This document shows positions 18,066 to 28,616 of a DNA stretch of 64,000 bases, one piece after another; positions within the stretch are counted from its first letter, which is position 1, and each line of letters begins with the position of its first letter. This DNA is from Streptomyces sp. XD-27. Its GTDB lineage: Bacteria > Actinomycetota > Actinomycetes > Streptomycetales > Streptomycetaceae. A program made the position numbers and the translations under genes. The notes beneath the pieces were generated by a model. It did no database searches, was not told the DNA's origin, and saw only the letters and a list, made by a program, of their open reading frames with translations. The stretch is taken from NCBI RefSeq assembly GCF_030553055.1, contig NZ_CP130713.1:6758001-6822000 (forward strand). The letters run 5' to 3'.

Positions 18066-19609
18066 GTGACGATGCCCGGAGCCCCGCGCTCGTACTGGAT
18101 GGAGACGGCCCCCGGGCCCGCCTACCCGCGGCCGCCGGCCGCCCTGCGCGTCGACGCGGCGGTCGTCGGAGGCGGCATCGCCGGAGTGTGCACCGCCTGG
18201 GAGCTGGCCCGCGCCGGGCGGTCTGTCGCCCTGCTGGAAGCGGACCGGATCGGCGCCGGGACGACCGGCTGCACGACGGCGAAGATCTCCGCGCTGCACA
18301 CCCTGAGCTATGCGCGGCTGCGCGCGACCCACGGGCCCCGGGCGGCGGGTCTGTACGCGGCCTCGCAGCAGGACGCCCTGGACCACATCGGCCGGGTCGC
18401 CGACGAGCTGCGCATCGACTGCGATCTGGAGCCCGCCCCGGCCTACACCTTCGTCACCTCGGACGACCGGCGGGAGTCGGTGCGGCAGGAGACCGAGGCC
18501 GCGCTGGCGGCGGGGCTGCCCGCCTCGCTGGTCACCGACACCGAGCTGCCCTTCCCGGTGGCCGCCGCCGTGCGCGTCGCCGACCAGGCCCAGTTCCATC
18601 CGCGCCGCTTCCTGCTCGCGCTCGCGGACGACCTGCGGGGCAGGGGCGGGCAGATCTTCGAGCACGCGCGGGTCACCGGCCTGCGACCGGGCCGCCCGCC
18701 CGTCCTCACCACCGAGGACGGGGCGACCGTCACCGCCGCGGACGTCGTCGTGGCCACCCACTACCCGGTGTTCGACCGGGCCCTGATGTTCCTGCGACTG
18801 GAACCGTTCCGTGAACTGGTCGTCGCCGCGGCCGTCCCCGCGTCGGCCGCGCCGCACGGCATGTACATCACCCCCGAGCAGGGCACGCGCTCCGTACGCA
18901 CCGCCCCGCTGGACGACGGACGGCGGCTGCTCATCGTCACCGGGGAGAAGTTCACCCCCGGCGCGGGCGGGGTGCAGGCCCGGTACCAGCGCCTCGCCGC
19001 GTGGCTGCGGCAGTACTTCCCCGACGCGGAGATCACCCACCGCTGGGCCGCCCAGGACATCGCCTCCACCGACCGGCTGCCGCTGATCGGACCGCTCCAC
19101 CCCGGCGCCGCCCACGTCTACGTCGCGACCGGCTTCGGCGGCTGGGGCATGGCCACCGGCGCGCTCGCCGGACGGCTCATCACGTCCCTGATCACGGGGG
19201 AGGGGACGCGCTGGGCCCGGCTGTACGACCCGCGGCGGCTGAAGCCCTCCGTGGAGGCCGGTCCCGCCCTGGCACTCCAGGCCCGGGCCGTACGGCACCT
19301 GGTCGGGGACCGAGTGACCGCGCCGCGCGTCGGCTCGGTCCGCGAGATCGCCCCGACTCCGGCGCCGTGGTGCGCGTGGGCGGGCGGCTCCGCGCGGTCC
19401 ACCGCGACCCGTCCGGGGCCGTGCACAGCCTCTCCGCCCGGTGCACCCACCTCGGCTGCGTGGTGCACTTCAACGACGCCGAACGCACCTGGGAGTGCCC
19501 CTGCCACGGCTCGCGGTTCGGCCTGGACGGGGCCGTGCTCCAGGGCCCGGCTGTGCGCCCGCTGGCCCGGGCCGAGAGCCCGCCGGACGAGCCTGCGCCG
19601 CCGTCGTAG
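18066..19609 (+). pseudogene. FAD-dependent oxidoreductase with C-terminal Rieske domain, frameshifted
   Basis: The frame from GTG 18066 encodes a DAO-type FAD oxidoreductase: dinucleotide motif VVGGGIAGVCTAWELARAG (~33-51), FAD-contact sequence GTTGCTTAKISAL and C-terminal FAD motif DRLPLIGPLHPG...GFGGWGMATG. Near 19351-19354 (CCCC) the frame breaks. One extra C leads ...VREIAP into DSGAVVRVGGRLRAV and a canonical Rieske [2Fe-2S] domain (CTHLGCVVHF...CPCHGSRF) ending at 19609. The joined product would be ~515 aa, normal for this Streptomyces family. Without the base, translation continues out of frame to 20183 through the next gene. Likely substrates are amines or amino acids; the partner is unknown. 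It is either an assembly indel or an inactivating mutation. Confidence 0.8.
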
Positions 19610-19698: not shown

Positions 19699-20958
19699 AT
19701 GGCGAAGCCGACGCTGCTGGTGATGGGGAGTACCGCGATGACACCGTGGGGCCGGGACCAGATCCGCAGGGTCTGCGCCCAGGCCCGGCGCCGGGGGCTG
19801 CGGCTGCTGGGGGCCGACACGGAACGGAACGTACGGGGCGCGCCGCCCGAGGAGATCGCCCTGATGGACGAGACCCTGGCCCTGGACGTCCACGACCCCG
19901 AGGCATGCCGTGCCTGGGCCCGCACGGTCCGGCCCTCCGTCGACGCGGTGCTGACCATCCGGGAGCTGTCCGTGCTGCCCACCGCGGTCATCGCCCGGGA
20001 ACTGGGGCTGGCGGGCAACGCCCCCGAGGCGGTGGTCCGCATCCGGAACAAGGACGAGTGCCGCCGGCGTCTGCGCGAGGCGGGCCTTCCGCAACCCGCC
20101 ACCGCCCTGTGCCGCAGCGCCGCCGAGGCCGAGGACTTCATCCGCCGCACCCCGCCGGGGCCCTGGGTCGTCAAGCCCCGTGACGGACTCGCCAGCATCG
20201 GCGTGTCCCGCATCGACGAGCCCGGCCGGCTGCCGGACGCGCTGGCGAGGTTCGGCGCTCCGCCACCCGCAATGGGCGACCTGCCGCTCTCCCCGTACTT
20301 CCTGGTGGAGACCTACGTCAGCGGTGACGAGTACTCCGCCGAAGGCGTCGTGGTCGGCGGCGTGCCCCAGGTGCTGGCACTGACGCGCAAGACCGTCACC
20401 GACGACTTCGTCGAACTGGGACAGCGGGTGCCCTCCGGGCTGGACGAGAAGACGTCGGGCGAGGCCGCCGACGCCGTCAGCCGGGCACTGACCGCGGTCG
20501 GCCTCACCCATGGCATCTTTCACGCCGAATTCTGGGTGACGCGGGACGGCATCGTCCTGGGCGAGCTCCACGACCGCGGTGGCGGGGACTTCATCCACGC
20601 GCTGGTCGAGCACACCCGCCCCGGACTGGAGCTGTACGGCACGCTGATCGACGACCTGCTCGGACGTCCCCCGGCTCCGGTCCCCGCACCGGCGGGCTCC
20701 GCGCGCGCCGAGTTCCTGCTCGCCCCGCCGGGCACGCTGCGCGCCGTCGACGGGTGGGACGAACTGGCCGCGCACCCCGCCGTCCAGGCGGCCCACCTCC
20801 AGGTGGCCCCCGGCGACGTCATCGGGCAGGCCAAGGACTCCTACACACGCTCCGCCGTCTTCGTCACGCGCGCCGACGACGGCCCCGACCGCGTCGACGA
20901 ACTCACCGCCGACCTGGCCGCCCGCGTGACCTTCCGGGTCACGTCCGAAACCGGCTGA
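19699..20958 (+). CDS. ATP-grasp ligase 1
   Basis: A 419-residue ATP-grasp enzyme, expected to activate a carboxylate as acyl-phosphate and join it to an amine or thiol. The N-terminal pre-ATP-grasp domain starts LLVMGSTAMTPWGRDQIRRV. The central region has the nucleotide-binding PGPWVVKPRDGLASIGVSR and LVETYVSGDEYSAEGVVVGG, and the metal-binding end has HAEFWVTRDGIVLGELHDRGGGDF. It is closely related to the second ATP-grasp protein at 23.2-24.5 kb on the other strand, so the locus encodes two ligases. ATG 19699 follows GTGGGGAG. It lies 90 bp after the FAD/Rieske gene and 52 bp before the aldehyde dehydrogenase, probably one plus-strand operon. Substrates are unknown. Confidence 0.88.
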   Translation: MAKPTLLVMGSTAMTPWGRDQIRRVCAQARRRGLRLLGADTERNVRGAPPEEIALMDETLALDVHDPEACRAWARTVRPSVDAVLTIRELSVLPTAVIARELGLAGNAPEAVVRIRNKDECRRRLREAGLPQPATALCRSAAEAEDFIRRTPPGPWVVKPRDGLASIGVSRIDEPGRLPDALARFGAPPPAMGDLPLSPYFLVETYVSGDEYSAEGVVVGGVPQVLALTRKTVTDDFVELGQRVPSGLDEKTSGEAADAVSRALTAVGLTHGIFHAEFWVTRDGIVLGELHDRGGGDFIHALVEHTRPGLELYGTLIDDLLGRPPAPVPAPAGSARAEFLLAPPGTLRAVDGWDELAAHPAVQAAHLQVAPGDVIGQAKDSYTRSAVFVTRADDGPDRVDELTADLAARVTFRVTSETG

Positions 20959-21010: not shown

Positions 21011-22390
21011 ATGCCGGAGACTTCAGCGGACACCGCATCGGACGCCTGCTTACCTCTCACCGACCCCAGGACCGGCCGCCCCAGGGACCCCGCCCCCGTC
21101 AGTGGGACGGGCCGCGTCGCCGCCGCGGTCGCGGCCGCCCGCGCGGCGCTGCCCGGCTGGGCCGGGCTGACGACCGCCGAACGGTCGCGCCGACTGCTCA
21201 GGCTCGCCTCTCTCATGGAGGACCACGCACAGGACTACCTCCGCGCGGAGCAGGCCGGCACCGGAAAGCCGGCCGCCGAGCTCACCGGCGAGATCGAGCA
21301 GTGCATCGATCTCGTCCGGTTCTACGCGGGCGCCGTACGGGCGGATCTCACACCCGCGAGCGGGCACCGGCTGCCCGGCCGGGAGAGCTGGGTGCGCTGG
21401 GAGCCCCTGGGAGTCGTCGCCGCGATCGTGCCGTGGAACTACCCGCTGATGATGGCGGTGTGGCGGTTCGCCCCCGCTCTCGCGGCGGGCAACACCGTCA
21501 TTCTGAAACCGGCGGAGACGACCCCGGACAGCGCCCTGCTCGTGGCGGCGCACGCCCGCGAGGCGCTGGGACCGGACGTCCTCGCCGCGCTGCCCGGCGG
21601 CCGGGCCACCGGCCGGTCGCTCGTCATGAGCCGCGGCGTGGACGGCATCGCCTTCACCGGCAGCCGGGCCGCGGGCCTGGACGTCGTCGCCCGCGCGGGG
21701 CTGCGCCGGGTGAGTCTGGAGCTCGGCGGCAACGCGGCGGCGGTGGTGCTGCCGGACGCGCCCGCGTACACGTACGAGCGACTGGTCGGGGCCTCGACGT
21801 ACAACGCGGGCCAGAGCTGCGCCGCCCCGGCCCGGGTGCTGACGCTGCGCGAGTCGTACGAGGAGGTCGTGGCGGGGCTGGCGGCCGCCATGGCCGGCCG
21901 CCGGGCGGGCGCGGACTTCGGCCCGCTCAACAACCCCGACCAGGTCAAGCGCCTCGACGCCATCCTGGAGGCCAGCGACGCCGGCGTCCGGAAGGTGTCG
22001 CCGTTGAGCCTCGGGGAGGGCGAGGAGGACGGCTATTGGCGGCCGGGCATGGTGCTGGCCGACGTGCCGGACGACGATCCGGCCGTACGTGAGGAGGTCT
22101 TCGGGCCGGTGCTGACGGTGCAGGCCCTGGACGACACCGACGCGCTGCTCAGGGCGGCCAACGGTGTGCCGCACGCCCTGGCCGCCAGCGTGTGGGGCCG
22201 TGACACCGCCGCCGTACTGCGGCTGGCCACCCGGCTCGACGCCGGCGAGGTGTGGGTCAACTGCCATCTGGAGCAGACCGGCGAGCTGCCGCACGGCGGC
22301 CGCAAGGAGTCCGGGCACGGAACGGACCTGAGCGTGCTGGCCCTGACCGAGTATCAGCGGCCCAAGACCGTCACCGTCAACGTGGAGTAG
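21011..22390 (+). CDS. NAD(P)-dependent aldehyde dehydrogenase
   Basis: A 459-residue aldehyde dehydrogenase oxidising an aldehyde to a carboxylate. The cofactor and active-site sequences are intact: [33 protein letters not shown], general-base Glu in LELGGNAA, and catalytic Cys in NAGQSCAAPARV (around residue 270). The C-terminal EVWVNCHLEQTGELPHGGRKESGHG resembles gamma-aminobutyraldehyde/betaine-aldehyde dehydrogenases, so an amino-aldehyde is a reasonable guess. It is slightly short for the family (~475-500 aa). Its 3' end overlaps the convergent methyltransferase gene by 14 bp. Confidence 0.92.
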   Translation: MPETSADTASDACLPLTDPRTGRPRDPAPVSGTGRVAAAVAAARAALPGWAGLTTAERSRRLLRLASLMEDHAQDYLRAEQAGTGKPAAELTGEIEQCIDLVRFYAGAVRADLTPASGHRLPGRESWVRWEPLGVVAAIVPWNYPLMMAVWRFAPALAAGNTVILKPAETTPDSALLVAAHAREALGPDVLAALPGGRATGRSLVMSRGVDGIAFTGSRAAGLDVVARAGLRRVSLELGGNAAAVVLPDAPAYTYERLVGASTYNAGQSCAAPARVLTLRESYEEVVAGLAAAMAGRRAGADFGPLNNPDQVKRLDAILEASDAGVRKVSPLSLGEGEEDGYWRPGMVLADVPDDDPAVREEVFGPVLTVQALDDTDALLRAANGVPHALAASVWGRDTAAVLRLATRLDAGEVWVNCHLEQTGELPHGGRKESGHGTDLSVLALTEYQRPKTVTVNVE

Positions 22391-23174
22391 CGGTCGCCGC
22401 CCGGCCGGTCCCGCTCCCGGGTGCCTCCGGCGCGAAGCGTGCCAGCACGTACAGCGCGGGGCCGGTCAGGTCGCTGTCGGCGGCCCGGGTGTTGTCGTAC
22501 ATGCCGAGGACCCGGAAGCCGTGACCGCCGAGATAGTGCTCGATCTCCTTGGGGAACGTCAGCCGGAACCTGACGTGGTCGCGCTGCGGCGGTCGATCGC
22601 CGATGCGCCATTCACGGGTGCGGACCAGGAGCTGGTTGCGGCGGTCGAGGCGGTACCGCGCGTCCGCGGTGGCGGTGAGCCCCGGCGTGTCGATGGTGAA
22701 ACGCTGCTGCAGGGCGTGGCCGTCCGGTGTGGCGATCGCATTGGGCACGTGCAGGATCAACAGCGTGCCCGGCACGGAGTGCGCGGCGAAGGTCTCCACG
22801 GTCCGGTCGAGGTCATCGTTGGTGTGGATGTTGGACAGCGCCCAGCCCAGGCAGGTGATCGCGGCGAACGTCCGGCCGAGCCGGAGTGCGCGCATGTCGC
22901 CGGTGTGGAAGTCGAGTCCGGGACGGCGCTTGCGGGCGTAGGCGACCATGGCGTCCTGGTAGTCGACGCCGACGCAGTCGAAGCCCGCCCGGGTGAAGTA
23001 CTCCGCATGGCGGCCCGTACCGCAGCCGATGTCGAGCAGGGAGCGTTCCGGTACGGTGCCGTGTTCGCCGATCAACCGCACGCACATGGCGGGAATGGCG
23101 GTTTCGGTGTCCGGATAGACCTCCTCGTACAGCTCCGGACTCTCGTACAGCAGATTGCTCAGCGACGGATCCAT
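22377..23174 (-). CDS. Class I SAM-dependent methyltransferase
   Basis: A 265-residue Rossmann methyltransferase. Motif I is LLDIGCGTGRHAEYFTRAGF (~47-66), motif II VGVDYQDAMVAYARKR, and motif III/IV the FAAITCLGWALSNIHTNDDL segment. The C-terminal half (TREWRIGDRPPQRDHVRFRLTFP) resembles small-molecule N- or O-methyltransferases of natural-product loci. The ATG 23174 follows GGGAGGGAA and overlaps the stop of the upstream ATP-grasp gene by 16 bp, so the two are translationally coupled. It is the last gene of the minus-strand operon. Confidence 0.9.
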   Translation of the reverse strand: MDPSLSNLLYESPELYEEVYPDTETAIPAMCVRLIGEHGTVPERSLLDIGCGTGRHAEYFTRAGFDCVGVDYQDAMVAYARKRRPGLDFHTGDMRALRLGRTFAAITCLGWALSNIHTNDDLDRTVETFAAHSVPGTLLILHVPNAIATPDGHALQQRFTIDTPGLTATADARYRLDRRNQLLVRTREWRIGDRPPQRDHVRFRLTFPKEIEHYLGGHGFRVLGMYDNTRAADSDLTGPALYVLARFAPEAPGSGTGRAATATPR

Positions 23175-24456
23175 GTTCCCTCCCGGTCACGGGCCATCGG
23201 CCCTCCGGGCTCGGCGGGGCGGGCGTCGAAGACGACGCGGGAGGCGAGGCCGGTGGCCAGCGCGTCGGCGTCGCCGGGGCTGTCGGCGCCGACGACGAAG
23301 ACGGCCGAGCGGGTGAAGGCGTCCTTGACCGCCGGGACGACGTCACCGGGGGCCACGTTCAGATCGGCGATCCGCACGGCGGGGTGGCCCGCCAGTTCGT
23401 CCCAGCCGTGGACGGCGCGCAGCGTGCCCGCGGGAGCGAAGAGGAATTCGACGCGTGCCGAGCCGACGGGGTCGGGGAACGGTGTGGGGGCACGGCCGAG
23501 CGCGTCGTCGACGCAGGCGCCGAACAACTCCAGGCCGGGCCGGGTGTGTTCCACCAGGGCGTGGATGTAGTCGCCGGCCGTCCGGACGTGGAACTCGCCG
23601 AGCACCACCCCCGACGGCGTCAGCCACAGCTCGACGTGGAAGATGCCGTGGGTGACTCCGAGCGCTTTCAGCGCCCGCGCCACGGTGTCCTCGGCGTCCG
23701 CCGCCACGTCCGGCGCGAGCCCTGAGGGCACCCGCTGGCTCGTCGAGAGGAAGCCGTCGGTGATCTGCTTGTGGGTCAGGGCCAGGACGTGGGGGACGCC
23801 GCCCACCACGACGCCTTCGGCGGAGTACTCCTCGCCGGTGACGTAGGTCTCGATCAGGAAGGAGCTCGCGGGGGGCAGCGATGCCTTGGGGGACAGCCCG
23901 CCCCACAGCCCGTCGACGGCCGCGGCCAGCTCCCCGCGGTGATCGATGCGTGAGACGCCGATGCTGCCCAGGCCCGCGCGCGGCTTGACGATCCAGGGCC
24001 CCGGCCCGGTGGCCTCCAGGAACCGTTCGGCGTCGGCGAGGCCGCGGCACACGGCACTGTGCGGCTGCGGGAACCCGGCCTCGCCCAGCCGCTGCCGGCA
24101 CAGGTCCTTGGTACGGACACGGGCCACCACCTCCGGGGCGTTGCCCGGCAGACCCAGCGCCTGAGTCACCTCGGCGGCGGCCAGGACGGAGGTCTCCCGG
24201 ATCGTGAGGACGGCGCCGACATCGGGCCGGGTGGCAAGCGCCCACTCCCGGCACGCCGTGGCGTCCTGCACGTCGAGCGGCACCACCTCGTCGAACAGGG
24301 CGAGATGCTCCTCCGGCGCTCCGTCGAGCAGCGCCGGTCTGTCGGCGCCGATCACCCGGGTCCGCCGGCGGGCCTGTTCGCTGATCCGCCGGACCATGTC
24401 CTGCCCCAGCTCGGCATGCCCGTGATGCCCAAGACCAGCACCGCCGCGTCTGTCAT
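23159..24456 (-). CDS. ATP-grasp ligase 2 (probable one-base frameshift near the N-terminus)
   Basis: A paralogue of the ATP-grasp protein at 19.7-21.0 kb, with the same blocks: PGPWIVKPRAGLGSIGVSR, LIETYVTGEEYSAEGVVVGG, HVELWLTPSGVVLGEFHVRTAGDY. The uninterrupted frame starts only at ATG 24397 (MVRRISEQARRR, 412 aa) and lacks the first ~20 residues of the fold. Just upstream an ATG at 24456 (GAGGCACC ribosome-binding site) encodes MTDAAVLVLGITGMPSWGR in the adjacent frame. One extra G at 24400-24402 would fuse it as ...SWGR-D-MVRRI, matching the paralogue's TPWGRDQIRRV. The restored protein is ~432 aa. Substrate unknown; it probably couples an amino or carboxylic acid in the same pathway as ligase 1. 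Confidence 0.85.
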
Positions 24457-24569
24457 GGTGCCTCTATGCCCTCTCTGTGGGGATGTCAGTGATGCCGCTG
24501 TGCCGGTTCAGCCGATCGGAGGGCGTGCCCCTTCATGTGCTCGGAGCACGCCCCGCCGGACATCGGGGA

Positions 24570-25376
24570 TCAGGTACGCCCGGCATCGGAGGTGATCGCG
24601 CTGTGGACGGCCGTCCACAGCCGGTGCCGGGCGTGCAGGGTGACCTGCACGGACCGGGCGCAGTCGGCCCACTTCCCGGCGTCGTCACCGCACAGGTCGA
24701 CGAGCATGTGCATCGCCATGGGCGTGTGCTCGTCCGCGTCGACCTCGATGTGGCGATCCAGGTAGTCCTTGAAGCGCGCCAGCCTGCCGTGCGGGTCCTC
24801 GATCCGGACGACCTGCTCGAACATCTCCGGGATCAGGTCCTCGCGGCCGAAGGCGAAGACCGCGGCCCGGCAGTGCAACGGGGCGGTCTCCAGCACGGTC
24901 CAGGTGCTGGTGACGAAGTCGGCCGACGCCTGCGGCACGCGCGCCGTCTCCAGGGCCTTCACCACCGGCAGCCCGTCGCGCAGGGCGTCGAGGAAGGCGT
25001 CGACGGGGGCGGTGTCGGCACCGAGGTCACCCATCGCCATGCGGTACAGCTCGAAGTGGCTGAGGTAGCCGTCCCCCAGCTCGTCGCTCTCCTCCACCAG
25101 CGTGATCTCGTTGATCAGCCGTCGGCTGGCCACCGGCCCCTGGGGCAACCAGGGCACCTCGACGCACGTCAGCTCGCGTTGCAGCGACGTCAGCAGGGAC
25201 ATGAAGTCCCACACGGCGAAGACGTGGTGCTCCATGAAGACCCGCGCGGCCGCCTCGGTCGTGACGGAGCGGTACATGTCGTGGCCGATGACGCTCGTGC
25301 GGGCGGGTGCGATCCGGTTCCTGAGGTCGGTCAGCCCCGGGTGTGAGACGGCGGTGTGGTACCGCGAGGTCGCCAT
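24570..25376 (-). CDS. DUF3050 haem-oxygenase-like (HDO-type) protein
   Basis: A 268-residue helical protein of the DUF3050 family, which has the haem-oxygenase-like fold now known from nonhaem diiron oxidases/oxygenases. Candidate metal ligands are visible: [25 protein letters not shown] and the hallmark [15 protein letters not shown] late in the protein. By analogy it would activate O2 with two irons or another dimetal centre to cleave or oxidise an amino- or fatty-acid-derived substrate. Two ferredoxins and a cupin are encoded just upstream in the same operon. Two ATGs overlap the cupin stop (ATGATGA); I chose the second (25376) because GGAG is better spaced. The function is inferred. Confidence 0.82.
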
Positions 25377-25963
25377 CATCGCTCCTTCGGCGGGGTGCCG
25401 CTGCGCGTGCCCTCGGCTCCGGCGCAGGCGTGGCACGGGCAGTGGGCACAGCCGACGTCATGCAGATAGGAGGGCAGCCGGGACTTGCCGTCGCAGATCA
25501 GGCAGTGCAGATTCCCGATCGGGCTGAGCACCTCCTCGTAGACCACGACGTCCATCCGGCCCTCGGAGTCGACCGGCATGTGCGGAGCGCCGATGGCCAG
25601 GATCACGTGATCGGTGATCGCCCCGACCGCGTGCGAGACGGCCCCTTCGACGATGTAGATCTCCCCCGCCTCGGTGGGATGGACGCGGCCGTTGTAGGTG
25701 ATGGTGCCCCTCCCGGCCAGGACCACCAGAACGTGGTGGCCGGGATGGGTGTGCGGCGGGAAGCCCTTGCCGGCGGGCAGCCGGATCACATCGGCTCCGA
25801 TGGTCCCGTTGCCGACCAGTCCCACGCCGGTCGCGTCGGCGCCGTGCATGGCCACGGGCCGCTCGCCGTGCGGGACGTGCAGGGAGGTGGCGTCGGTGCC
25901 GATCGCGGCGTCGGCCCACCGGACGATGCTGAGCTCGTCCTGCACCGCGGGCTGCGAGGTCAT
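25376..25963 (-). CDS. Cupin-domain protein with a cysteine-rich tail
   Basis: A 195-residue protein. The cupin barrel (~55-130) has metal-ligand candidates in [18 protein letters not shown] and [10 protein letters not shown]. After it comes a tail unusual for cupins with ten cysteines-plus-histidines packed as [12 protein letters not shown]...[13 protein letters not shown] (CxxC...CxxCxCxxC), which looks able to bind zinc or an Fe-S cluster. It may be a metal-dependent oxygenase/isomerase or a metallo-partner of the DUF3050 protein. Its ATG overlaps the ferredoxin stop and its stop overlaps the DUF3050 start. I do not know a characterised protein with this combination. Confidence 0.8.
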
Positions 25964-26220
25964 GACGCGGCCCCGTCGGCGTCACGGAAGTAGGCGGCGT
26001 TGAGCTCGGTGAAGTGCTGCCACTCCGGCGGCACCTCCTCCTCCCGGTAGATCGCGTCGACCGGGCACACGGTGGCGCACAGGTCGCAGTCGACACAGCG
26101 TTCGGGATCGATGAACAACTGCCGGTCCCGCTGCTCGCCCTCGATACAGTCCACCGGACAGACGTCGACGCAGGCTCCGTCCTTGACGTCCACACAGGGC
26201 TGGGTGATGACGTATGTCAC
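25960..26220 (-). CDS. Seven-iron ferredoxin (3Fe-4S/4Fe-4S)
   Basis: An 86-residue ferredoxin from the GTG at 26218-26220 (GAGGAG upstream). The cysteine pattern is that of 7Fe ferredoxins: Cys9, Cys17 and Cys52 for [3Fe-4S]; Cys21, Cys42, Cys45 and Cys48 for [4Fe-4S]; with Cys25 the extra Cys also present in Azotobacter FdI. The C-terminal EVPPEWQHFTELNAAYF is typical of actinobacterial FdxA/FdxC. It overlaps the Rieske gene (GTGA) and the cupin gene (ATGA). The context suggests it delivers electrons to the DUF3050 oxygenase or the P450. Confidence 0.93.
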   Translation of the reverse strand: MTYVITQPCVDVKDGACVDVCPVDCIEGEQRDRQLFIDPERCVDCDLCATVCPVDAIYREEEVPPEWQHFTELNAAYFRDADGAAS

Positions 26221-26537
26221 GTGCGATCTTCTCCTCGTGAAGCGGTGTCGGTACGAGAACCCTTCTCGGTGCGGTGGGGCCGGGCCCGGCCTTCGCCCTG
26301 GCCCGGGCAGCCGTCGACGGTGACCGCCAGGTCGGAACAGACCGGCCCGCGCAGCCGCTTGCCGGTGCGCAGGTCGAAGGTGGCCCCGTGCCAGGGGCAC
26401 TCCAGGAAGGCGCCGTCGACGACTCCTTGCGCCAGCGGGGCACCGCGGTGCGGGCAGCGTGCCGGCACGGTGACGGCGCGATCGCCCAGCTGTACCGTGA
26501 ACACGTCCTTGCTGCTGCTCAATTCGGCTCCGATCAC
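26217..26537 (-). CDS. Rieske-type [2Fe-2S] ferredoxin
   Basis: A 106-residue Rieske protein with both ligand pairs, CPHRGAPLAQG and CPWHGATFDLRTG, in the spacing of biphenyl-dioxygenase-type ferredoxins. The C-terminal ~30 residues are polar and probably disordered. The likely GTG start (26537) lies inside a short repeat that also forms the end of the upstream gene (CCACCTGTGA), so the start is less certain than the fold. It is a small electron carrier, probably partner of an oxygenase in this operon, and its stop overlaps the ferredoxin start. Confidence 0.88.
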   Translation of the reverse strand: MIGAELSSSKDVFTVQLGDRAVTVPARCPHRGAPLAQGVVDGAFLECPWHGATFDLRTGKRLRGPVCSDLAVTVDGCPGQGEGRARPHRTEKGSRTDTASRGEDRT

Positions 26538-26599
26538 AGGTGGCGATCCCGGCCTTTCACAGGTGGAGGTCCGGACCTTTCACAGGTGGAGGTCCCTGA
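26533..26599. repeat. 23-bp tandem duplication at the gene junction
   Basis: CCTTTCACAGGTGGAGGTCC occurs at 26553-26572 and again at 26576-26595, with a degenerate partial copy (ATCACAGGTGG) at about 26533. One copy encodes the C-terminus and stop of the 678-aa protein; the degenerate copy contains the GTG start of the Rieske gene. Confidence 0.75.
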
Positions 26600-28616
26600 C
26601 CTTGCCCGCCCATTTCTCCGCGAACTGCAGATCTCTCCGGTACGTCGCGTCAGCGATCCCCTTGGCCCATTGCGTATAGCGACAGCCGCGGACCATGTCG
26701 CGCGGCCGGAAGCGGTTCTCCTGGCGGTATGCGGACCGGTTCAGCCGGACATCCGCGAGGCCGTTCCATTCGGTTCCGCGATGCTCGACGGTGATGGGCA
26801 GGCGGCATGCCAGCCGTATCCCCGCCGCGGTGTGTCCGCCGTGATTCGCGTCTTCCGCGATGGCGATGTCGGGAAGGTTGAAACCCTGGGGCGCGAAACG
26901 CTGAACCGGCGCGTAATTCTGCGCCTTCTTCACCGCGTTGTACCGCATGCGCTGAGCGATGATGTTGTACATCTCCACCCGGCTTGCGGTGATTCCGTGG
27001 TCCTCCGGTCGGAATCCGTCCCGGAATCCGGTGTAGCAGAACAGGTCCGTGAACTCCATGGTCCACGGCGCGTCGAGCTTACGGCCCACCGGGACCGTGA
27101 AAATGGCGAGATCGACCTCGGGATCCGGGCTGTTCGCCGCCCAGTGCGCGATCTCCTGCAGGAGGCGGGTCGGACTGCTGCCCGCTTCCAGAGCCAGCTC
27201 CACCAGCCTGTCCCAGTCCTCCGGCCGGCCGGTCCGTCCGGGCAGTTCGACGCCGACGCTGTCGTACAGATGGCGGCACAGCCCCTCCGGCACCCGCTGG
27301 ACCCGCCGGTATATCGAGCGCGGCAGCAGGAACTCGCGGCGTTCCCAGTTGCTGCCGTCGAAGTGCAGGCACCGCTCGAACTCCGCCTCGACACCGGTGC
27401 GGACCGCTCGCAGGCGCCGGGCCAGCGCCACGACATCGTTGCCGACCGGCTCCACGACATCGTTGCCGACCGGCTCCACGACGTCGGCGACGTCCGGCTC
27501 CACCGGGGCGGCGGAGGCCGGCGTGCCCGGGGCGGTGGCGAGCTGACCGCCGTACGTCCGCGCCTTACGCGTCAGGAACAGCGCGAGCGCGGGGAAGGAG
27601 AGCAGCGACTGGTTCAGCTCCTGGAGCACGCACCCCGACTCGTGCCAGCACCAGAGCACCGTCGCGAGGACGAGATGGCATCCGGACCAGTCGGCGACGT
27701 CCGCCTTACGGCATTCGGCGACCATCGCGACGACGGCCCGGTTGTCGAGCACCTCCTCATCGACCAGGAGCCGCACCCGTTCGATCGAGGAGACCCGCTG
27801 CTCGAACCCGGCCAGCAACTCGTCGCGCTCGGCGTCCGCGAGCCGCTCCCACGCCCGTCGGGCCACCGCCGGAAGGTCCCGCAGCGCGACGGGCGGGCCG
27901 AGCCACAGAGCGGCGCCCGACCCGCCGGGTGGCTGAGCGGCAGCGCCTGCCCCGCCGGGCGGTCGAGCGGCGGCACCCGCCCCGTCGGGTCCGTGAACAG
28001 CTGCGTCCGCTGCCGCGACCACCCCCAGCCCGTGCGCCCGCGCGACGTCCCGTGCCGCCTTCACGTCGTCGACCGCCACCAGCGGGGCGTGCAGCCGTAC
28101 GGCCGCCGCCAGCGCGGCGACGTCGGTCAGCTCCGCGTCGGTGACCACGACCGTGTCCGTGGCCAGCCCCAGCGCCTCGCCGATCCGCGGAAGGACGGCG
28201 GCAGGGGTACCGCCGAGCATCCCGAGCCACTGCCCCATACGGTCCAGGGCACCCGCCACGCCCTCCGCCTCACGCCCCATGGCCAGACAGAACACGTACC
28301 ACCAGACCAGCGACGCCCGCGCGTAGGGAACCTTGAAGCGATACCAGAGCCGCTGGAAGCGCGCGAAATCCTCCGCGTCGATCCCGTACCCGGCCAGCTC
28401 ACCCGGCTGAATGCGGAACTTTCCACCGCGCGTCAGTCCATCGACAACATCCCGACCTAGGACCTCCGCCGCGGCCATACCCAGCACGACGACCAGATCA
28501 TCGTCCTCGTTCAGCATTTTCAGTCTGCCGAGTAATTCTTCTTCGATTCGGGCGACTCGGACTTCGTCCTCCTCGGTGAAGTCCGGATGCGCACACAGCG
28601 AGACCGACGATGTCAT
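26580..28616 (-). CDS. Large protein of unknown function heading the accessory operon
   Basis: A 678-residue protein that I do not recognise. The ATG at 28616 has GGAGG five bases upstream. Residues ~1-200 are predicted helical (RIEEELLGRLKMLNEDDDLVVVLGMAAAEVLG; FARFQRLWYRFKVPYARASLVWWYVF). Then come a Gly/Ala/Pro repeat tract (GAGAAARPPG, GAGAAAQPPG, ~215-235), another helical part, an octapeptide repeat (VEPVGNDV twice, then VEPDVADV, ~372-395), and a conserved-looking C-terminal domain (~400-678) rich in polar, Arg and aromatic residues (QRMRYNAVKKAQNYAPVQRF; AEDANHGGHTAAG; QENRFRPRDMVRGCRYTQW). There is no signal peptide or clear membrane helix. As first gene of the operon it is likely the pathway-defining enzyme or a scaffold. 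Confidence 0.8.
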   Translation of the reverse strand: MTSSVSLCAHPDFTEEDEVRVARIEEELLGRLKMLNEDDDLVVVLGMAAAEVLGRDVVDGLTRGGKFRIQPGELAGYGIDAEDFARFQRLWYRFKVPYARASLVWWYVFCLAMGREAEGVAGALDRMGQWLGMLGGTPAAVLPRIGEALGLATDTVVVTDAELTDVAALAAAVRLHAPLVAVDDVKAARDVARAHGLGVVAAADAAVHGPDGAGAAARPPGGAGAAAQPPGGSGAALWLGPPVALRDLPAVARRAWERLADAERDELLAGFEQRVSSIERVRLLVDEEVLDNRAVVAMVAECRKADVADWSGCHLVLATVLWCWHESGCVLQELNQSLLSFPALALFLTRKARTYGGQLATAPGTPASAAPVEPDVADVVEPVGNDVVEPVGNDVVALARRLRAVRTGVEAEFERCLHFDGSNWERREFLLPRSIYRRVQRVPEGLCRHLYDSVGVELPGRTGRPEDWDRLVELALEAGSSPTRLLQEIAHWAANSPDPEVDLAIFTVPVGRKLDAPWTMEFTDLFCYTGFRDGFRPEDHGITASRVEMYNIIAQRMRYNAVKKAQNYAPVQRFAPQGFNLPDIAIAEDANHGGHTAAGIRLACRLPITVEHRGTEWNGLADVRLNRSAYRQENRFRPRDMVRGCRYTQWAKGIADATYRRDLQFAEKWAGKVRDLHL
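27431..27502. repeat. Three 24-bp tandem units inside the unknown gene
   Basis: Units at 27431-27454 and 27455-27478 are identical (CGACATCGTTGCCGACCGGC then TCCA). The third, at 27479-27502, is degenerate. They encode the in-frame octapeptide repeat VEPVGNDV of the 678-aa protein. Confidence 0.85.

What the first reader, a model, noticed from the sequence alone, without database searches (positions are those of the whole stretch)
22377..28616. Uncharacterised operon combining a DUF3050 haem-oxygenase-like protein, a Cys-tailed cupin, two ferredoxin types and ATP-grasp/methyltransferase enzymes
Seven minus-strand genes are tightly packed; five junctions overlap or nearly so (GTGA, ATGA, ATGATGA, a 16-bp overlap), so the products should be co-produced. 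The set is an unknown 678-aa protein, a Rieske ferredoxin, a 7Fe ferredoxin, a cupin, a DUF3050 protein, an ATP-grasp ligase and a methyltransferase. Known haem-oxygenase-like diiron enzymes build unusual groups in natural products, and ATP-grasp enzymes make amide bonds without ribosomes or NRPS. Converging plus-strand genes add a second ATP-grasp and an aldehyde dehydrogenase. No NRPS, PKS or terpene synthase is present, so standard cluster detection could miss it. That it makes a small molecule is inference.
Basis: partly seen in the sequence, partly recalled or inferred. Interest (0 to 1): 0.85.

Follow-up and report, generated by a model that had tools for sequence, protein, structure and literature searches.

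The report
Likely nitrogen-nitrogen bond-making gene cluster
A rare set of Streptomyces genes looks like a small-molecule assembly line whose 'unknown' main protein is a distant relative of a recently described heme enzyme that joins two nitrogen atoms, so it is a good place to look for a new nitrogen-nitrogen natural product.

Summary
The seven minus-strand genes are real and tightly packed, and the neighbourhood is conserved: among 11 related contigs, Rieske follows the 678-aa gene in 11, a 7Fe ferredoxin in 9, the Cys-tailed cupin is present in 10. The heart of the set is the 678-aa protein (A678). It has no Pfam or PDB match, but is a remote homologue of KinJ/FzmP/NegJ, nitrite-using heme enzymes that form hydrazines (PMC12154649): profile-profile probability 99.4%, one unrelated control 0.15%. 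KinJ's proposed heme ligand His541 and Cys468, Arg497, Asn501, Arg551, Arg570 have counterparts in register; His504 and Lys356 do not. Ten of the 14 KinJ-like reference loci are fosfazinomycin/kinamycin-type cassettes. Best reading: a divergent clade beside KinJ, fed by 7Fe and perhaps Rieske ferredoxins, makes a hydrazino amino acid; cupin, DUF3050 and ALDH remodel it; ATP-grasp ligases and a methyltransferase finish a peptide-like product. Homology is shown; the chemistry is inferred. New variant of a known kind.

The parts
26580..28616 (-). A678: divergent clade related to the KinJ/FzmP/NegJ heme hydrazine-forming family; proposed heme ligand His595, with Cys527, Arg556, Met557, Asn560, Arg605, Arg624
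   Evidence: no Pfam/NCBIfam/PDB match; profile-profile match to KinJ-like proteins; residue mapping and spacing; separate group in a tree
26217..26537 (-). Rieske [2Fe-2S] ferredoxin (106 aa), GTG start
   Evidence: PF00355 45.3 bits; in 11 of 11 related contigs; Cys/His motif present
25960..26220 (-). FdxA-type 7Fe ferredoxin (86 aa), GTG start; proposed electron donor of A678
   Evidence: Fer4 47.2 bits; NF045480 FdxA_Actino 104.6 bits, below its cut-off of 125; 7Fe-type Cys pattern; 9 of 11 related contigs
25376..25963 (-). Cys-tailed cupin (195 aa): invariant His71, 73, 77, 111 and a C-terminal CxxC...CxHCPCxxC tail
   Evidence: PF07883 45.4 bits; invariant columns in 20 aligned homologues; PDB relative 9ug7 over residues 10-183
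24570..25379 (-). DUF3050 heme-oxygenase-like protein (269 aa)
   Evidence: PF11251 293.5 bits, cut-off 22.2; PDB relative 9vwb; conserved E96, E97, H108, H210, D214, H218
23159..24397 (-). ATP-grasp ligase A with LAL_C2 domain; likely start ATG at 24456, reading frame interrupted near 24400
   Evidence: PF13535 58.8 bits, PF18603 54.6 bits; frames compared with relatives
22377..23174 (-). SAM-dependent methyltransferase (265 aa)
   Evidence: PF13649 53.8 bits; in 4 of 11 related contigs (L002, L004, L007, L011), beside an ATP-grasp gene
21011..22390 (+). aldehyde dehydrogenase, convergent here but co-directional with the operon in L002, L003, L005, L007, L009 and L011
   Evidence: PF00171 379.4 bits; 7 of 11 related contigs; directions
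19699..20958 (+). ATP-grasp ligase B with LAL_C2 domain; a homologue is divergent upstream of A678 in L002-L007 and L011
   Evidence: PF18603 58.7 and PF13535 52.2 bits

Best explanation
The operon is an N-N bond biosynthetic cluster. A678 is a heme enzyme of a divergent KinJ-like clade. [quoted passage not shown] heme binding and reaction inferred). The Cys-tailed cupin, the DUF3050 protein and the ALDH then oxidise or remodel that unit (inferred, weak). The two ATP-grasp ligases join it to other amino acids and the methyltransferase caps it, giving a small peptide-like product with an N-N group (inferred from family functions).
For: (1) The A678 profile over 293 Streptomycetales genomes gave 4 close copies and distant hits in 17 further genomes. 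I read 15 such distant loci (four genomes not read): 14 KinJ-like and one third-clade protein (L065). In 10 of the 14 an amidase and a glutamine-synthetase-like gene adjoin, and 9 of these also have GNAT and adenylosuccinate-lyase-like genes (Pfam on representatives): the gene set of FzmN-R/KinJ-N (PMC6133997, passages). (2) Among 304 called genes the A678 HMM at E up to 10 hit only 3 A678, the 14 KinJ-like proteins and L065; among 182 control genes nothing. (3) hhalign 99.4%, E 1.8e-21 for a one-profile search; one unrelated control 0.15%. (4) KinJ residues C468, R497, M498, N501, H541, R551, R570 (PMC12154649) fall at +1 in cassette protein L052_9 and map to A678 C527, R556, M557, N560, H595, R605, R624; spacings C-M 30, H-R 10, H-R 29 are kept. 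(5) Ferredoxin genes adjoin A678, and KinJ needs one. (6) The Ramlibacter MAG locus L012 adds an HDO and a flavin/NAD reductase after the ferredoxin, and a nitronate monooxygenase (a class recalled as releasing nitrite) nearby.
Against: Identity to KinJ-like proteins is only 17-21%, BLAST scores 37-52 bits. KinJ His504 has no counterpart, Lys356 is Arg, Met498 is Gln in 6 of 17 rows of the clade, Cys468 is Ala in 1. Structure prediction was off, so the heme pocket is untested. No CreD/CreE-like nitrite source was found among 344 genes of these loci; the window genome has a CreE-like gene far away without a CreD neighbour, and such genes are common in the genus. The Cys-tailed cupin occurs in 8 loci without A678 (L024-L031), 5 of them with the ALDH, so these two are not specific to N-N chemistry. 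L008 and L010 lack the 7Fe ferredoxin. The tree program warns of long branches.
Confidence: 0.68

Rival explanations
1. A678 shares the KinJ fold and heme site but does another reaction: nitrite or NO chemistry giving N-nitroso or nitro products, or O2 activation driven by the Rieske protein, with DUF3050 and cupin as co-oxidants.
For: A Rieske protein is present in 11 of 11 contigs but has no blastp counterpart (1e-6) in the 14 KinJ-like loci and is not mentioned in the KinJ paper's main text. Two KinJ active-site positions (H504, K356) differ.
Against: The proposed heme ligand and the three substrate arginines are kept in register, which argues for the same ligands and substrates.
Confidence: 0.2
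2. One reading: the key step is HDO (DUF3050) oxidation of an amino acid, followed by ATP-grasp ligation, as in the mangotoxin mbo cluster; A678 is accessory.
For: HDO plus ATP-grasp clusters are known (PMC13185094, passages); DUF3050 conserves plausible metal ligands.
Against: tblastn finds no DUF3050 in 4 of 11 A678 contigs (L006, L008-L010; other HDO types were not scanned for there, and L010 is only 9.6 kb) and L012 has a different HDO, while A678-Rieske persists.
Confidence: 0.08
3. A catabolic or detoxification operon that breaks down an N-N or nitro compound.
For: A heme enzyme that degrades a nitramine exists (NnlA, start of abstract of PMC11035981 in a listing); ALDH and cupins are common in catabolism (general knowledge).
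Against: Two ATP-grasp ligases with LAL_C2 domains and a methyltransferase point to assembly; the cupin's sporadic presence (11 of 392 Streptomyces genomes at 1e-40) is typical of specialised metabolism.
Confidence: 0.04

Closest known systems
KinJ/FzmP/Lom29/NegJ heme hydrazine-forming enzymes with a ferredoxin partner (PMC12154649)
   Same: Homologous C-terminal domain; proposed heme His, Cys, Asn and three Arg in register; adjacent ferredoxin genes; 7Fe ferredoxins are also used in that family (Burkholderia clusters, NegJ); ATP-grasp genes are frequent beside KinJ homologues.
   Different: 17-21% identity to KinJ-like proteins, separate group on a long branch; no H504, K356 is Arg; a Rieske gene in 11 of 11 contigs; no GS/GNAT cassette genes found; cupin, DUF3050 and ALDH instead.
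ham/pvf/mgo clusters (fragin, valdiazen; leudiazen for mgo is recalled)
   Same: MgoB matches DUF3050 in print (PMC3298696); HamA (PvfA) is described as a haem-containing oxygenase and HamB as a cupin protein (PMC11659414). That HamA/PvfA are the MgoB counterparts is my inference from gene order and description.
   Different: Those use an AurF-type N-oxygenase and an NRPS, not seen among the window proteins scanned; the passages read name no KinJ-like, Rieske or ferredoxin protein.
N-nitroglycine (nng) pathway of S. noursei (PMC13274452)
   Same: An HDO homologue (NngH) is a proposed oxidant of a hydrazine-derived intermediate (passage).
   Different: Precursor is hydrazinoacetic acid with label from lysine and glycine (title and start of abstract), so I infer another hydrazine-forming route; whether a KinJ-like enzyme is absent there I did not check.
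Mangotoxin mbo cluster (MboA HDO, MboC/MboD ATP-grasp; PMC13185094)
   Same: HDO plus two ATP-grasp ligases in a small cluster (passages).
   Different: Described as five enzymes with an alkyne-forming HDO; no heme/ferredoxin N-N module in the passages read.
PDB 9ug7 (cupin) and 9vwb (DUF3050 protein)
   Same: Homologues of the window cupin (E 1.2e-64) and DUF3050 protein (E 1e-47).
   Different: No paper in the held library names either entry, so their functions are unknown to me.

Membership tests
KinJ/FzmP/NegJ heme hydrazine-forming family | Sequence-profile homology to the hypothetical protein of kin/fzm-type cassettes | tested here: met
   hhalign 99.4%, E 1.8e-21 over 464 columns; HMM hits in both directions; one unrelated control 0.15%. 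KinJ's own sequence was not at hand; cassette proteins stood in for it
KinJ/FzmP/NegJ heme hydrazine-forming family | Heme/active-site residues H541, C468, R497, N501, R551, R570 in register | tested here: met
   H595, C527, R556, N560, R605, R624; spacings 30/10/29 kept. C527 is Ala in 1 of 17 rows of the clade
KinJ/FzmP/NegJ heme hydrazine-forming family | Further KinJ positions M498, H504, K356 | tested here: inconclusive
   M557 present in the window protein (Gln in 6 of 17 rows); H504 has no counterpart; K356 is R426
KinJ/FzmP/NegJ heme hydrazine-forming family | Ferredoxin partner encoded beside it (not universal in the family) | tested here: met
   7Fe ferredoxin in the window and 9 of 11 related contigs; Rieske in 11 of 11. 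FzmP and NegJ often lack one
KinJ/FzmP/NegJ heme hydrazine-forming family | Heme b binding; hydrazino acid from nitrite plus amino acid | not testable with these tools
fzm/kin five-gene hydrazino cassette | GS-like and GNAT genes (FzmN, FzmQ) beside the KinJ homologue | tested here: not met
   No GS or GNAT hit at 1e-10 among 344 genes of the A678/cupin loci and window; amidase and lyase hits were not printed there
Heme-oxygenase-like dimetal oxidases (DUF3050 branch) | Pfam match and conserved candidate metal ligands | tested here: met
   293.5 bits vs cut-off 22.2; E96, E97 in 15 of 15, H210, D214, H218 in 14 of 15, H108 in 13 of 15
Heme-oxygenase-like dimetal oxidases (DUF3050 branch) | Dimetal cofactor and O2 activation | not testable with these tools
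   Modelled as diiron in print (PMC4520260, passages)
MetRS/cupin hydrazine synthetases | MetRS-like domain fused or adjacent to the cupin | tested here: not met
   No tRNA-synthetase domain among the ten window proteins scanned; definition from PMC11705231 passages
ham/pvf/mgo diazeniumdiolate clusters | AurF-type N-oxygenase and NRPS | tested here: not met
   None among the ten window proteins scanned; the rest of the window was not scanned

The most novel reading that the evidence does not exclude
A678 founds a second major branch of reductive, nitrite-using hydrazine-forming heme enzymes that draws on two ferredoxins (Rieske plus 7Fe), and its product is handed to a Cys-tailed cupin and a DUF3050 HDO that raise the hydrazine to another N-N group (diazeniumdiolate, nitramine or hydrazone) inside an ATP-grasp peptide: a new class of N-N natural product and a direct link between DUF3050 enzymes and hydrazine chemistry.
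Probability: 0.35. Interest if true: 0.85.

Novelty: new variant of a known kind. Interest (0 to 1): 0.68.

Why it matters
KinJ-type enzymes, which make N-N bonds reductively from nitrite, were described in a 2025 preprint and had no recognisable domain. This places a rare, unannotated clade (33 protein clusters in a capped search of 5.8 billion sequences) beside them, with an electron-supply arrangement (Rieske plus 7Fe) not mentioned in that preprint's main text. It gives a concrete test of which KinJ residues matter (H504 is dispensable if A678 works) and a lead to N-N peptides that marker-based cluster search may miss. It may also give DUF3050 proteins, of unsettled role in mgo-type clusters, a second N-N context.

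Tried and rejected
Rejected or set aside. (a) A678 as a class-I synthetase because of its HxGH motif: dropped once the motif matched KinJ's proposed heme His. (b) The cupin as half of a MetRS/cupin hydrazine synthetase: its neighbour in 10 other loci is an AMP-binding family (Pfam on three members), not MetRS. (c) A nitrite source: none in the loci. CreE/CreD-like genes lie elsewhere in 5 of 6 A678 genomes searched at 1e-20 (adjacent pairs in G950, G688, G934; CreE-like alone in the window genome; none in G759), but 86 of 101 Streptomyces genomes match at 1e-60, so this says nothing. (d) DUF3050 as the marker: 24 of 295 Streptomyces genomes have it. (e) A link to enteromycin (recalled as an S. 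albireticuli product): the listing gave nothing useful. (f) PDB and Pfam searches with A678 alignments: nothing significant. (g) P. donghuensis 'cluster 17' as a DUF3050 lead: no DUF3050 in the main-text passages. Fold search was not run because no model could be made. Gene calls come from a simple codon-usage caller of mine: it missed the Rieske genes of L008/L010 that tblastn found and split A678 in L007. L068/L069 duplicate L011/L003 and were not counted. In the KinJ-like set the published KinJ spacings hold in full (30/37/10/29) in 6 of 14; 10 and 29 in 13 of 14 and 30 in 12 of 14; L066 was mis-anchored by my pattern.

Full report
Observation. The seven genes exist as described in a 7.55-Mb single-contig genome (window = G000:C1:6758001-6822000). 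The ATP-grasp's first ~20 codons are in a different frame.

Conservation. A genome scan with the 678-aa alignment returned 11 contigs: 8 Streptomyces, two actinobacterial MAGs (L008, L010) and one Ramlibacter MAG (L012). By tblastn at 1e-6: Rieske 11 of 11; 7Fe ferredoxin 9 of 11 (not L008, L010); Cys-tailed cupin 10 of 11 (L012 has a Cupin_2 protein without the tail); DUF3050 6 of 11, plus L012 with a Haem_oxygenas_2 protein (108.8 bits) that also passes the DUF3050 cut-off (26.9 vs 22.2 bits); ALDH 7 of 11; at least one ATP-grasp 8 of 11; methyltransferase 4 of 11. One more locus, L067, repeats the full Streptomyces layout. In six contigs the ALDH is co-directional with the operon, and in seven an ATP-grasp gene is divergent upstream of A678; the window's order is rearranged. 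The family is rare: 33 clusters with E up to 1, where only the 7988 candidates sharing most words were scored.

Identity of the 678-aa protein. Pfam, NCBIfam and PDB gave nothing significant. Its profile over 293 Streptomycetales genomes gave 4 close copies and distant hits in 17 further genomes. I read 20-kb stretches around 15 distant loci, from 13 of those 17 genomes and from two genomes that also hold a close copy (G950, G847); G557, G843, G884 and G955 were not read. Fourteen carry KinJ-like proteins (482-652 aa by my gene calls) and one (L065) a third-clade protein. Ten of the 14 lie beside amidase and glutamine-synthetase-like genes, 9 of these also beside GNAT and adenylosuccinate-lyase-like genes, and 5 of the 14 have a small ferredoxin gene just before them (Pfam/NCBIfam on the L059 representatives). 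The other four have other neighbours (ATP-grasp in L056, L060, L061; a DAHP synthase in L057). The ten match the five-gene fosfazinomycin/kinamycin set (PMC6133997, passages), whose hypothetical protein KinJ/FzmP is now reported as a heme b enzyme that, with a ferredoxin, makes hydrazinosuccinate from aspartate and nitrite (PMC12154649, preprint: parts 1-3 of the main text, Conclusions and figure legends read).

Profile-profile comparison links the two families (99.4%, E 1.8e-21; the one control, A678 against the cupin family, 0.15%, E 0.39). The published KinJ residue numbers fit cassette protein L052_9 exactly at +1, and A678 keeps C, R, M, N, H, R, R with the 30-, 10- and 29-residue spacings; His504 has no counterpart and Lys356 is Arg. 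In a tree the KinJ-like group (support 100/99) and A678 (86/98) are each one side of a branch, separated by a long branch; the program warns that long branches meet, L065 most of all. Pairwise BLAST scores are only 37-52 bits. I cannot tell whether the 869 homologues of that preprint include this clade; its main text does not mention Rieske, cupin, DUF3050 or aldehyde dehydrogenase.

Electron supply. The 7Fe ferredoxin fits the family (7Fe proteins serve Burkholderia clusters and NegJ). The Rieske protein is the new element: present in 11 of 11 contigs, without a blastp counterpart in the 14 KinJ-like loci, and fused to the cupin in P0066-P0068, so it may serve the cupin, A678 or both. Contigs without DUF3050 still keep it (L006, L008-L010), so it does not serve DUF3050 alone.

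Tailoring genes. DUF3050 is a likely dimetal oxidase. MgoB of the mgo operon is a DUF3050 protein; HamA (PvfA), described as a haem-containing oxygenase, looks like its counterpart (inference), and HamA and/or HamE are listed as putative N-N formers (PMC11705231, passages); yet the mgoB mutant still made mangotoxin at a lower level, perhaps because part of the gene was kept. The cupin has four invariant His and a Cys-rich tail. It also occurs in 8 loci without A678 (L024-L031): 5 have the ALDH and 7 the AMP-binding enzyme, so its role is not settled.

Verdict. Relationship to the KinJ family is well supported by sequence; heme binding, the hydrazine-forming reaction and everything downstream are inference. 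None of the listings or passages seen (held open-access library only) names this clade.

Noticed in passing
window 18066-19609 (+): FAD-dependent oxidoreductase whose Rieske tail is in another frame, the second apparent frameshift near this locus; sequencing errors or decay.
   Followed up: partly
window 24397-24456 (-): 5' end of the ATP-grasp A gene is in a different frame from the rest.
   Followed up: partly
L065:9751-11040 (-): 429-aa protein with a DxHxxGH-like motif, hit by the A678 profile (3e-19) but not by the KinJ-like profile at 0.01: a possible third clade.
   Followed up: partly
L090, L091, L093, L094, L095, L098, L099: In 7 of 10 fetched loci the other Streptomyces DUF3050 gene lies near an operon that looks like p-aminobenzoate synthesis (judged by eye from sequence, not scanned).
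   Followed up: no
L012:4926-5693 (+) and L012:7958-8977 (-): Ramlibacter MAG locus carries a flavin/NAD reductase and a nitronate monooxygenase near the A678-Rieske-ferredoxin-HDO-cupin genes: candidate electron and nitrite suppliers.
   Followed up: partly
L063 and L067 (G950); L064 and L068 (G847): Two genomes carry both an A678 cluster and a separate kin/fzm-type hydrazino cassette.
   Followed up: no
L028, L029, L030, L031: Cys-tailed cupin plus ALDH in a cluster with TauD, aminotransferase, BtpA, SIS, luciferase-like and methyltransferase genes; three of the four also have an AMP-binding gene; product unknown.
   Followed up: no
L056, L060, L061: KinJ-like protein followed by ATP-grasp, a peptidase C26 family gene and uncharacterised genes: an unassigned KinJ-type cluster.
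   Followed up: no
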